Counted from the stretch's first letter, positions 57,294-62,177 are shown. The stretch: 64,000 nt of DNA from Gemmatimonadota bacterium (GCA_022826565.1 JAJDUP010000026.1:306742-370741), one strand, 5' to 3'. The notes: generated from the letters alone by a model not told the origin. Numbers and translations: made by a program.

Positions 57294-58568
57294 GTGTCCT
57301 CCATCCTTCCCACCCTCGTCAATCCGTCGCGTCCTCGCCCGGAGATTCCCTCCAGGGGGAGCGACCACGAGCACCTCCCGCATGTACTGAAGTTCTCCGG
57401 TGGTCGGTCCTCAGCAGCATTGGCGTTCCTGCTAGCCGAGGGCGGCCTTCTCCGCCCGGAGCGCGGCGATGTGGTCCTGTTCGCGAACACTTCGGCCGAA
57501 CACCCGGCAACCTACGACTTCGCGAGGGAATGCAAGGAACGACTGGAGAGAGACTTCGGGCTTCCCTTTTTCTGGTTCGAGTTCTGCACGGTGGAGGACG
57601 CCAGACGAGGCGTCTACGTTCGGCGTCCCTCCTACCGACTCGTTACGTCTAACCCGGTTGAGAGCGACCCGCGCGGCTACCGATCACGCGGTGAAGTCTT
57701 CGAAGAGATGCTCTCATATCAGGGGATGTTGCCCAACCCTCATTCACGGTCGTGCACGGCCAAGCTGAAGCTCTATCCGTCCCATCAACTACTCGCCGAG
57801 TGGTTTGGCGTGGGTTCGGGTGCGAGACATGCTGGTCACCATTCGACTCGGCGCTACGTAACGCCGGATTTGGCCTTGGGTCGGTATCGCCGTAGCGGTG
57901 GAACCGCATCGGATGAAGCCTATCTACGGAGAATCGAGTGCTTGACTCGCCAACCTTCCTCTCGACCTGCCCAGCGCTGGCGGGACTACACCGCAGGTCG
58001 CGTCAATCGTCCCGTCGGCGCGCCCCGCTTGGCCCCAATGTGGGGAAGTGACGCAACGCTCCACGTGACGCTACTGGGACTGCGTGCGGACGAAGGCGGG
58101 AGGGTCCGGAGAATCCTGGATCGGTCGCTGTTCGCCGAGGGCGCCGGAAGTCGAAGATGTGCAATTCGCACTCAACCTCCGGGGGAGCGCCCGTGCTTCC
58201 CGCTCGTCGACTGGGGGTTCGATGAAGGGGCCGTTGGGCGGTTTTGGCGCCGCCGTGGCTTCGATCTTGAGCTGCCCGCCTTGGCGGGAAACTGTGTCTT
58301 CTGCTTCATGAAGGGAACCAAGGCGATCGGCGTTGGTGCGCGTGAGGCTGATCCCATGCGGGTGCCCGATGCTCCCTCCGACATTGCGTGGTGGGTGCGA
58401 ATGGAGCAGAAGTACCGACGTGAGGTTCCGGCCCGGAACGGAGGAGGAGTTTCCAGATTCGGCTTCTTCGGTCTTCGCGGGCCGACCTTCGCAGAACTCG
58501 CCGCTGCGGGAGGCAACGATGGCGACCGCTACGCCCGTGGTGTCCCGGCATGCGACTGTACCGACTAA
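57294..58568 (+). CDS. phosphoadenosine phosphosulfate reductase-like PP-loop protein with Cys cluster
   Basis: HVLKFSGGRSSAALAFLLAEG (PP-loop), VVLFANTSAEHPATYDFARECKERLERDFGLPFFWFEFCTVED, SRSCTAKLKLYP, GNCVFCFMKG. Start uncertain (GTG 57294; track ORF 57153). Confidence 0.82.
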   Translation: MSSILPTLVNPSRPRPEIPSRGSDHEHLPHVLKFSGGRSSAALAFLLAEGGLLRPERGDVVLFANTSAEHPATYDFARECKERLERDFGLPFFWFEFCTVEDARRGVYVRRPSYRLVTSNPVESDPRGYRSRGEVFEEMLSYQGMLPNPHSRSCTAKLKLYPSHQLLAEWFGVGSGARHAGHHSTRRYVTPDLALGRYRRSGGTASDEAYLRRIECLTRQPSSRPAQRWRDYTAGRVNRPVGAPRLAPMWGSDATLHVTLLGLRADEGGRVRRILDRSLFAEGAGSRRCAIRTQPPGERPCFPLVDWGFDEGAVGRFWRRRGFDLELPALAGNCVFCFMKGTKAIGVGAREADPMRVPDAPSDIAWWVRMEQKYRREVPARNGGGVSRFGFFGLRGPTFAELAAAGGNDGDRYARGVPACDCTD

Positions 58569-58592
58569 TGGGAGAGCGAGCCCGCTGACGAC

Positions 58593-60512
58593 ATGGACGG
58601 AAACCTGATCTTCGGTTCGGCCAACCAGCCCCAAGGGTTTCTGAACCTGGCCATGGCCAAGTGGGATGGAAACCCCGAGCCCATTGTCCGAGAGATGCTA
58701 CAGAACTGCCTTGATGCCGCCGTCGAAGCTAATCGCACGGCGGGCGAAGTGTGTTTCACGATCCGCCGAGTCCCGGTTGACACGATACCGGGCATCGAAG
58801 CGTATCGCGAGCACTTCGAGGCCGCGGTCCACGAACGGGCGAAGGGCAAACAGGGTGCGGCCGAACGCCGTGTCGTCAAGCGCATTCAGCGAGTCCTCGC
58901 GGGACCGGACACGCAGGTTCTGTTTTGCAGGGACAACGGCATAGGGCTCAACGCCGACCGGATGAAGAGGATCCTCACGGAGGGGAACACCGACAAGAGC
59001 GAAGCTGGGGCCGGAGCTTTTGGAATCGGCCACTTGACCGCCTTTGCTGCCTCCGACCTCCGCTTCATCCATTACGCCGGTCGCAGCCGCTCCGGCGGGA
59101 GCTTGCGGGACGTGGCGAGCGCGCACGCGGTGCTGGCCTCCCGAACCGTCGACAGCAACAGCGGCCGAGGCGCGCACGGTTTCTGGCTCCTGGGTGACGA
59201 CCGAACCCTGTTCCACCCGCATCCGTACCCCAACACGGTGCCCAGCCTGCTGCGTCCCGAGATCGAATGCTTGGACGACACCGGGAGCGTAGTGGGCGTG
59301 ATCGGATTCAATGAATTCCGCAGCGAGGAGAAGCCCGCTGATGCGATCTCGCGGGTGGCGGCGAAGAACTTCCTGGTTGCGATATGGAACAGAAGCATGG
59401 TCGTTCACGTTCGTGACGAGACCACTTCGTCCGAGCAAACGGTGGATCGCGAGAGCCTGGAGATGATCCTCGACCGCGAACGCAACCGCAAGCGTGCCGA
59501 ACAGGGAGGCGGGTGGCTTTCGGGTGAGCAGGCCTATCGGGCATGGAAAACCCTGGAAACGGGCCGCAAGCTGCGATTCGAGGAGGACGGTGTGGGCGGC
59601 TATTTCCGGTCTCTGAGTGACGGTGCAAAGCACCGTGCTCGCTCGCGCGTTCAGGTCTTCCGGAACGGCATGTGGATCACGAACGAGGCCGACCGCCTAT
59701 TGCCCAGGGACTTCAATGGGTTCAAACCATTTGACGCAATCCTGGAGATCGACAGCGGCGAAGTCGGCGACCTGCTTCGCGGGGCCGAGGGTCCCGAGCA
59801 CCGGGGTTTGGAACGCAGGCGGCTTGGCAGACGCGGTAGCCGCAAACTGCTAGACAAGCTCAAGGAACTTGCCGCTCGGCTTCGCGAAGAGGCTGGACGA
59901 GTGGAGCAATCCGACGAATTCACCCCGAGCGGTTTCGCGATGTTCCGGGGCGATGCCGAAAGGGAAGCGGAGAAGGTTCCCCCCTATCGCCCGAGGCGTA
60001 GTCCGGTTGCGGTGCCGGCCGCCTCAGGGGGGCCAGGAGAAGAGAGCACGCCCCAACCGGACCCTGAAGAGGGCGGGTCGGTTGATCGGGAACCCGGACC
60101 CGGGCCAAGGCCAACGAGGCCACGGCGGGTTACTCCCAAGCCCGGAAAGAGCATTCGTGGCCGTTGCTCGGTCCGTGCCGTCGCCGACGCGGATGGTCAG
60201 CTAAAGCAACTTCGAGTGATTTGGCGACCCGCGCGCGGAACTCAGCGGTCGAGCGACACTCTGGTGGTCCGGGTCCGGGTTCCGTCCGGATCGGACGAGA
60301 CCTGCGTTCATCCTATCGGTCCCCGGTGGCTCCGCATCAGCAAGCTGCACTGCAACGGCGAAGTATCCGATCCGCAGGACGGCGGGTTTGAGGTCAAGCT
60401 TCCTCATGGCGAAGACCCCTTCACGATCATGTTGGCGGATAGCATTTCGGATGCAAACGCGGTCGAGGTGGATGTCGTCGGTCGCCGCCCACCGGTACGC
60501 AAGGGCGGATGA
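58593..60512 (+). CDS. GHKL (HSP90/MutL/MORC-like) ATPase
   Basis: N box IVREMLQNCLDAAV, G1 FCRDNGIGLNADRMKRILTEGNTDKSE, G2 AGAFGIGHLTAFAASDLRFIHYAGR. Confidence 0.85.
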   Translation: MDGNLIFGSANQPQGFLNLAMAKWDGNPEPIVREMLQNCLDAAVEANRTAGEVCFTIRRVPVDTIPGIEAYREHFEAAVHERAKGKQGAAERRVVKRIQRVLAGPDTQVLFCRDNGIGLNADRMKRILTEGNTDKSEAGAGAFGIGHLTAFAASDLRFIHYAGRSRSGGSLRDVASAHAVLASRTVDSNSGRGAHGFWLLGDDRTLFHPHPYPNTVPSLLRPEIECLDDTGSVVGVIGFNEFRSEEKPADAISRVAAKNFLVAIWNRSMVVHVRDETTSSEQTVDRESLEMILDRERNRKRAEQGGGWLSGEQAYRAWKTLETGRKLRFEEDGVGGYFRSLSDGAKHRARSRVQVFRNGMWITNEADRLLPRDFNGFKPFDAILEIDSGEVGDLLRGAEGPEHRGLERRRLGRRGSRKLLDKLKELAARLREEAGRVEQSDEFTPSGFAMFRGDAEREAEKVPPYRPRRSPVAVPAASGGPGEESTPQPDPEEGGSVDREPGPGPRPTRPRRVTPKPGKSIRGRCSVRAVADADGQLKQLRVIWRPARGTQRSSDTLVVRVRVPSGSDETCVHPIGPRWLRISKLHCNGEVSDPQDGGFEVKLPHGEDPFTIMLADSISDANAVEVDVVGRRPPVRKGG

Positions 60513-61291: not shown

Positions 61292-61295
61292 CGAA

Positions 61296-62177
61296 GTGAA
61301 CCGCAACCTGATCAGACGGGCGGACGCCTCCTTCACCGAATGGCAGAGGGGCATGATCTTCGAGAAGAAGATCCACCGCGTCAAATGGGAAGAGGCACCT
61401 GAAGAGATCAGGGCGCCGATTCGGCGACGGCAAGCCGAACTCATCGAAGCCGTTACGGATGGGCCAACCGAGTTGGTGCGATACCTCAGGTCGCGGTTGA
61501 GGCTGGACAGTGAAGAGACGATCGAAGCGCCGTCGTTTCCGCGCAAGGAACTCACGCCGGACGAGTACAAGGCTCCTCCGGTGGAGTTGGAGGAGGAATT
61601 GGGCGCGGCTTGGAAGGACGTCTTGGAACACCGCGCGGCGCTCGCGTCGAGCCCTCTGTTTTGGCTCCTCTGCCATATCGTGTGGATCGAGGAGGGTCGG
61701 CTCGGCGCCGACGGTCTGGCGCTTGACGAAGCTCTGCTGTCCGGTGTCGAGAAGAGAGAGGGTCGAATCAGGAACTTCCTTCGGCGTACCGGGGGTCTGC
61801 CGCGCGTCCGTGGCAATACGTCCGTGTTCTCTGACTGTCTGCTGGCGCGAGCTTGGTGGCGTTTCCATTTGGCCGAGGAGGTGGACCGGACCACGGAGGG
61901 TCGCATCGAGGCGGGGGCGGCACACTGGCTCTTTCACTTCCATCGCCCGAGTTGGGAGACGTTGGTCACGATGTCCCTGAGGAGGGTGACGACCATCAAC
62001 CAGCCGCGTGCCCGGGCAGCCATCGCGTATCACCTTGGGGAAAGGATGCGAACCAACGGTCGGTTCAACGAGAAGGATGTTGAGGCCATCGCGACGGGGT
62101 TGGCTCGCGTGTCGTTGCGCCGCTCGTTGGATCTGACGCCGTTGGAAGAGCTATACGAAATGGCGGTTGCCCGTTGA
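61296..62177 (+). CDS. probable DUF6339 family protein
   Basis: GTG 61296: ...FLRRTGGLPRVRGNTSVFSDCLLARAWWRFHLAEEV...LFHFHRPSWETLVTMSLRRVTTINQPRARAAIAYHLGE. Family name from memory, to be confirmed. Confidence 0.6.
   Translation: MNRNLIRRADASFTEWQRGMIFEKKIHRVKWEEAPEEIRAPIRRRQAELIEAVTDGPTELVRYLRSRLRLDSEETIEAPSFPRKELTPDEYKAPPVELEEELGAAWKDVLEHRAALASSPLFWLLCHIVWIEEGRLGADGLALDEALLSGVEKREGRIRNFLRRTGGLPRVRGNTSVFSDCLLARAWWRFHLAEEVDRTTEGRIEAGAAHWLFHFHRPSWETLVTMSLRRVTTINQPRARAAIAYHLGERMRTNGRFNEKDVEAIATGLARVSLRRSLDLTPLEELYEMAVAR

What the first reader, a model, noticed from the sequence alone, without database searches (positions are those of the whole stretch)
57294..62177. Candidate undescribed defence/modification cassette: PAPS-reductase-like + GHKL ATPase + unknown + DUF6339-like
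Four co-directional genes with 24-bp, overlapping and 4-bp junctions sit on a tRNA-bounded island. The first has a PP-loop (SGGRSS) and a Cys cluster (SRSC, PCFP, NCVFC), recalling DndC/PAPS-reductase-type sulfur or nucleotide chemistry. The second has clear GHKL N/G1/G2 boxes. From established work on MutL/MORC-like ATPases in restriction-type operons (Iyer, Abhiman and Aravind), such ATPases often act with modification or nuclease genes. I see no recognisable DNA methylase, helicase, DndB/D/E or nuclease here, so it is neither Dnd, Ssp nor a canonical RM system as far as the window shows. A speculative model: the PP-loop enzyme marks nucleic acid and the GHKL complex senses it.
Basis: partly seen in the sequence, partly recalled or inferred. 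Interest (0 to 1): 0.78.

Follow-up and report, generated by a model that had tools for sequence, protein, structure and literature searches.

The report
Sulfur-enzyme plus MORC-type ATPase defence cassette
A four-gene bacterial cassette, kept together across many phyla, couples a DndC-like sulfur enzyme to a three-gene MORC-type ATPase module that elsewhere sits beside DNA methylases, which suggests an uncharacterised immune system that tells self from foreign DNA by a sulfur mark.

Summary
The four genes are real and form a unit. A (57294-58568) is a PP-loop/PAPS-reductase-like enzyme; B (58593-60512) a GHKL ATPase; C (60509-61291) a predicted beta-sandwich protein; D (61296-62177) an all-helical DUF6339 relative. 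A-B-C-D recurs in seven genomes of the genus and, in all, in about 43 loci of many phyla, often as the only foreign genes in the flank. B-C-D is a divergent branch of PADLOC's uncharacterised candidate PDC-M33, and B carries the ExxxH signature of paraMORC2 (75/75), so the trio is not new. What I found described nowhere is its pairing with A. On the B tree, one fully supported clade has A in 44 of 47 rows; the other has DNA methylases (26 C5, 1 HsdM of 38) and never A. Ten A loci also carry a cysteine desulfurase. DndD (above cut-off) is missing from 29 of 31 A genomes and DUF4007/SspB from 25; the window's genome has neither. Best reading: a restriction-modification-like system with a sulfur mark instead of methylation. 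The chemistry, the target and the effector step are inferred. The 'tRNA' is a 5' half only.

The parts
57294..58568 (+). Gene A: PP-loop ATPase / PAPS-reductase-like sulfur enzyme, distantly related to SspD/DndC; five invariant cysteines, invariant C-terminus CxC-T-(D/E)
   Evidence: (PAPS_reduct 0.0021; SspD 3.5e-10; phrog_424 1.2e-31)
58593..60512 (+). Gene B: GHKL ATPase, PDC-M33A relative, paraMORC2-type (ExxxH motif E399...H403)
   Evidence: PDC-M33A 4.2e-24; ExxxH 75/75
60509..61291 (+). Gene C: PDC-M33B-type protein; AlphaFold2: FN3-like beta sandwich followed by helices (pLDDT 92.7)
61296..62177 (+). Gene D: DUF6339 / PDC-M33C relative; AlphaFold2: all-helical (pLDDT 95.2)
56113..56153 (+). 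5' half of a tRNA-Arg(CCT), probably the scar of an integration site
56435..57070 (-). NYN-domain RNase-like gene (PADLOC HEC-09), divergent from A; next to A in G007 and G019 too, not found in the more distant copies tested, so probably accessory

Best explanation
A-B-C-D is a self-contained, restriction-modification-like defence cassette. A (a DndC/SspD-like PP-loop enzyme) takes sulfur from a cysteine desulfurase (housekeeping IscS here, a dedicated operon copy in about ten relatives) and puts a sulfur mark on host DNA, most likely a phosphorothioate, possibly a thio-base. B-C-D (a paraMORC2/PDC-M33 GHKL ATPase clamp with a beta-sandwich and a helical partner) scans DNA and acts against DNA without the mark. 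Shown: four genes as a conserved unit, family relations, exclusivity with C5 methylases, linked desulfurase. Inferred: DNA as target, sulfur as the mark, B-C-D as the interference arm.
For: Conserved A-B-C-D order in many phyla, tight junctions (medians A-B 19 bp, B-C -4 bp, C-D 18.5 bp) and strongly correlated A, B, C, D distances (Mantel r 0.87-0.95). B tree: 100% supported split, A in 44 of 47 rows against C5 methylase in 26 of 38; 0 of 41 A loci carry a C5 or type I MTase by the seeds used. Inside the A clade, L044 has an N6/N4 methylase (N6_N4_Mtase 1.1e-17) in A's place, sister to A-bearing L048. Cysteine desulfurase in ten A loci, GmrSD_N/DUF262 in twelve. Defence neighbours: Zorya, AbiE, Pbe. 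Precedents: BREX type 4 replaces its methylase by a PAPS reductase (PMC12839542); DndDE-type cores recruit cytosine methylases in place of PT genes (PMC10853773); paraMORCs lie in R-M operons (PMC2292703).
Against: No nuclease motif or fold was recognised in B, C or D. Some B-C-D trios stand alone with no linked modification gene (L077, L093), and some accompany complete R-M pairs (L068, L072, L044), so the trio need not be 'the restriction enzyme'. L134 and L135, in the A clade, lack A (the same genome has an A-B-C-D elsewhere). The A/methylase split follows mostly one deep branch, so it is few events and the Fisher p is inflated. A is far from DndC/SspD, and no partner known to deliver it to DNA is present. 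The desulfurase is IscS-like rather than DndA-like.
Confidence: 0.52

Rival explanations
1. B-C-D is not the restriction arm but the DNA-scanning arm of the modification machine, doing for A what DndD-DndE or SspB-SspC do for DndC/SspD; restriction comes from elsewhere (the linked DUF262 protein, Vsr, a type II enzyme, or a Pbe module).
For: A has no recognised DNA-targeting domain; DUF262 in 12 A loci; L030 has A-B-C-D followed at once by PbeA and PbeC; DndDE cores pair with either PT genes or cytosine methylases (PMC10853773).
Against: C5 methylases do not need a scanner; many A-B-C-D cassettes have no nuclease gene nearby; B-C-D also stands alone.
Confidence: 0.22
2. A modifies a protein of the system (for example B, C or D) rather than DNA, as QueC-like PP-loop proteins do in type IV CBASS and qatABCD; the trio is then an abortive or sensing device switched by that modification.
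For: QueC-family enzymes do this in two defence systems (PMC11996544, PMC13279940); B-C-D stands alone in some Firmicutes.
Against: Does not explain why A and DNA methylases alternate around the same trio or the N6/N4 methylase in A's place in L044.
Confidence: 0.1
3. A thiolates RNA (a tRNA-modifying PP-loop enzyme) and A-B-C-D works as a toxin-antitoxin or tRNA-based arrest system.
For: Many PP-loop enzymes with CxxC motifs thiolate tRNA (general knowledge); a NYN RNase-like gene lies next to A in three close relatives.
Against: Closest named profiles are SspD, BrxP and phage PAPS-reductase families, not tRNA thiolases; NYN is absent from the more distant copies tested.
Confidence: 0.06
4. 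A and B-C-D are merely neighbours in defence islands, without joint function.
For: Zorya, AbiE, Pbe and DUF262 neighbours show these are defence islands.
Against: Same order in dozens of loci of many phyla, short junctions, correlated distances, and cassettes flanked only by housekeeping genes, for example in L064.
Confidence: 0.03

Closest known systems
PADLOC candidate PDC-M33 (PDC-M33A, B, C)
   Same: GHKL ATPase, middle protein and DUF6339 protein in the same order; B hits PDC-M33A at 4.2e-24 and the Firmicutes homologues of C and D hit PDC-M33B/C at 1e-101 and 5e-100
   Different: Window C and D are too diverged to hit the models; no PADLOC model for gene A as a PDC-M33 part was found; the non-A trios sit beside C5 or type I methylases, not beside A
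paraMORC2 GHKL ATPases in R-M operons (Iyer, Abhiman and Aravind 2008, PMC2292703)
   Same: N-terminal GHKL motifs and the family's ExxxH motif, invariant in 75/75; non-A relatives lie beside cytosine methylases and Vsr
   Different: The paper does not mention PAPS reductase or desulfurase partners
Dnd (DndACDE) phosphorothioation
   Same: PP-loop/PAPS-reductase enzyme with conserved cysteines; a cysteine desulfurase in ten related loci
   Different: No DndD above cut-off in 29 of 31 genomes with A; A is only distantly related; a GHKL trio takes the place of DndD-DndE
Ssp (SspABCD-SspE)
   Same: A matches SspD (3.5e-10); DUF262 proteins, as in SspE, in a subset
   Different: No DUF4007/SspB in the window's genome nor in 25 of 31 A genomes
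BREX type 4
   Same: The methylase of the system is replaced by a PAPS reductase, with a desulfurase in 56% of taxa (PMC12839542)
   Different: No other BREX component was recognised in the cassette or among the 25 families reported most often for its flanks; GHKL trio instead

Membership tests
PDC-M33 (PADLOC) | GHKL protein matching PDC-M33A | tested here: met
   4.2e-24, residues 29-451
PDC-M33 (PADLOC) | second and third genes matching PDC-M33B and PDC-M33C | tested here: inconclusive
   No direct hit for window C and D; both belong by iterated profile to families whose Firmicutes members hit PDC-M33B 1e-101 and PDC-M33C 4.9e-100
paraMORC2 | N-terminal GHKL ATP-binding motifs | tested here: met
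   Invariant E34, N38, D114, G118, G141, G144, G146
paraMORC2 | ExxxH motif after the GHKL domain | tested here: met
   E399 and H403 invariant in 75/75
paraMORC2 | S5-fold domain after GHKL | not tested
Dnd | DndD ABC ATPase | tested here: not met
   TIGR03185 absent from the window's genome; above cut-off in 2 of 31 A genomes
Dnd / Ssp / BREX 4 | PP-loop PAPS-reductase-type enzyme | tested here: met
   SspD 3.5e-10, BrxP 0.0081, PAPS_reduct 0.0021; distant
Ssp / BREX 4 | DUF4007 (SspB) protein | tested here: not met
   PF13182 absent from the window's genome, present in 6 of 31 A genomes
Dnd / Ssp | phosphorothioate in DNA | not testable with these tools
   needs LC-MS or PT-dependent cleavage
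classical type I-III R-M | DNA methylase plus restriction nuclease in the cassette | tested here: not met
   None recognised in A-D

The most novel reading that the evidence does not exclude
A further route to sulfur-marked DNA: one dedicated enzyme (A) with a MORC-type GHKL clamp in place of the DndD-DndE or SspB-SspC scanners, and interference by an ATPase complex without a recognisable nuclease, i.e. a minimal four-gene sulfur-based self/non-self system spread across many phyla, many of its carriers apparently sponge- and sea-associated.
Probability: 0.35. Interest if true: 0.88.

Novelty: new variant of a known kind. Interest (0 to 1): 0.7.

Why it matters
PDC-M33/paraMORC2 is a widespread module for which I found no tested function. 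Its split between linked DNA methylases and a linked sulfur enzyme suggests what it reads: the modification state of DNA. It would be another case in which a defence core swaps methylation for sulfur, and it would extend DNA sulfur chemistry to a system lacking the partners thought to be needed. Both points can be tested with a four-gene construct of about 5 kb.

Tried and rejected
Wide searches of the window's class and phylum failed on the server. Single-sequence PDB searches gave only chance hits for A and B, and profile searches nothing convincing for A, B, C or D (B's weak best hits are MutL, 0.14). Fold searches: C resembles FN3/Ig-type sandwiches only (best Z 7.4 over 92 residues), D has no clear match (best Z 5.2; Foldseek best E 0.87); absence of a match is not evidence of a new fold. 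HEPN in D considered and rejected: no conserved R-x4-6-H in the consensus. Phages and plasmids: only fragments of PAPS-reductase-family proteins resemble A. G014 has an A without B-C-D; its conserved C-terminus is lost, so I read it as a remnant. Literature: no paper held names PDC-M33 or DUF6339; the preprint that may define the PDC candidates is not held, so I cannot exclude that the A link was noted there.

Full report
What is there. The window lies in a 4.4-Mb genome whose contig ends at the window's last base; its relatives are Gemmatimonadota/Longimicrobiales MAGs. The tRNA claim is only half right: there is a 5' half of tRNA-Arg(CCT) at 56113-56153 and no full tRNA in the window; a tRNA-Arg(CCT) gene is on another contig.

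Families. A: weak PAPS_reduct (0.0021), SspD 3.5e-10, phage PAPS-reductase family phrog_424 1.2e-31. Its family has an invariant C154 (R-x-C-T), C334-x2-C337, and a C-terminal CxC-T-(D/E) in 32/32 rows, a pattern that could hold an Fe-S cluster (inference). B: GHKL, PDC-M33A 4.2e-24; E399-xxx-H403 is invariant in 75/75, the signature of paraMORC2 (PMC2292703). C and D: no direct hits to a named family of their own, but by profile they belong with the PDC-M33B and PDC-M33C/DUF6339 proteins of Firmicutes.

Conservation. In the genus, seven of 23 genomes, the window's included, hold a full-length or nearly full-length B, each with A directly upstream; A also occurs in G014, as a copy that has lost its conserved C-terminus and lies next to an AbiV-like gene, without B-C-D. 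One scan of the genome collection brought 79 loci. B-C-D keeps its order in all loci where the contig is long enough, apart from fragmentary copies; A is in 41 distinct loci of the survey, from Gemmatimonadota, Acidobacteria, Chloroflexi, Actinomycetota, Proteobacteria, Nitrospinota, Entotheonella and others, and in two more found later. Arrangements: A-B-C-D directly (as here); A, desulfurase and/or DUF262, then B-C-D; B-C-D-A; and B-C-D-A-B-C-D. Some copies have A or B split by frameshifts, which may be assembly error or decay. Flanking genes of A loci share no recurring family except a few core ones. The A, B, C and D distance matrices correlate at r 0.87-0.95.

The key contrast. A maximum-likelihood tree of 85 B proteins splits with full support into a clade of 47 rows with A in 44, and a clade of 38 rows with C5 methylases in 26, HsdM in 1 and nothing found in 11. 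No locus with A carries a C5 or type I methylase by the seeds used (0 of 41, against 27 of 41 without A). This is mostly one deep event, so the count must not be read as independent trials. Of the three A-clade rows without A, two (L042, L046) lie at contig edges; the third, L044, has an N6/N4 methylase and a gene with a PD...ELK pattern upstream of B and is sister to A-bearing L048. Two further A-clade trios in the same genome (L134, L135) also lack A; L134 lies beside a type ISP enzyme, L135 beside nothing recognisable; that genome has an A-B-C-D elsewhere, L037.

Sulfur supply. Ten A loci carry a cysteine desulfurase, mostly between A and B. It is closer to IscS (362 bits) than to DndA (232 bits). 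In BREX type 4 and Dnd the dedicated desulfurase is likewise sporadic and replaceable by housekeeping IscS (PMC12839542).

What is missing. DndD is above cut-off in only 2 of 31 A genomes and DUF4007/SspB in 6 of 31; the window's genome has neither. A therefore works without the known scanning partners, or with B-C-D as partners. L030 is a singular case: A-B-C-D is followed by PbeA and PbeC, a CxC-type Dnd relative (PMC10853773).

Structure. C is predicted with high confidence as an FN3-like beta sandwich plus helices (pLDDT 92.7, pTM 0.74), D as an all-helical protein (95.2, 0.91). Neither shows a nuclease fold among the matches; this is not proof that there is none.

Mechanism. Best reading: A marks self DNA with sulfur and the GHKL complex acts on unmarked DNA, perhaps by clamping it (MORC and MutL proteins are ATP-gated DNA clamps; general knowledge). 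The weak step is the last: trios also occur alone or beside full R-M pairs, so B-C-D might scan for A, or be a separate layer of defence. I rate four genes as one unit about 0.95, a defence role about 0.85, DNA sulfur marking about 0.6, and B-C-D as the interference arm about 0.55.

Novelty. The trio is known as a candidate (PDC-M33) and B as paraMORC2; methylase-for-sulfur exchange is known in BREX type 4 and in DndDE-type cores. The A-linked branch of PDC-M33 is what I could not find described in the papers I could search.

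Noticed in passing
L030:65-10097: A-B-C-D is followed directly by PbeA (1.7e-147), PbeC (1.2e-40) and a small 171-aa protein: a possible joint PT/Pbe locus in a Thermoanaerobaculia MAG.
   Followed up: partly
L055:7905-16865 and L056:433-9182: B-C-D-A-B-C-D: two diverged trios around a single A in two Acidimicrobiia genomes; the paired B proteins may form heterodimers.
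   Followed up: partly
genome G046 (loci L037, L044, L134, L135): One Acidimicrobiales genome carries four B-C-D trios: one with A, one with an N6/N4 methylase, one beside a type ISP enzyme, one with no partner seen.
   Followed up: partly
L065, L066, L067, L068, L069, L073, L079, L087: In Clostridia, B-C-D is followed by a protein of about 950-1100 aa that in the two scanned copies matches RNA polymerase alpha C-terminal and sigma-70 region 4 domains; role unknown.
   Followed up: no
L077:6873-12081, L093:5305-9977: B-C-D stands alone beside queuosine genes (queA- and tgt-like, by sequence appearance) in Selenomonadales, as if the trio were inserted in a queA-tgt operon.
   Followed up: no
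window 62344-63831 (-): A 495-aa ORF downstream with only weak matches (DUF445, 0.037) near the contig end.
   Followed up: no
L138:3884-7855: In G014, on the contig of the A remnant, a C5-methylase-like ORF is followed by a different GHKL protein (HATPase_c_3) with a weak Mrr-like nuclease region, a MORC-type R-M pair.
   Followed up: partly
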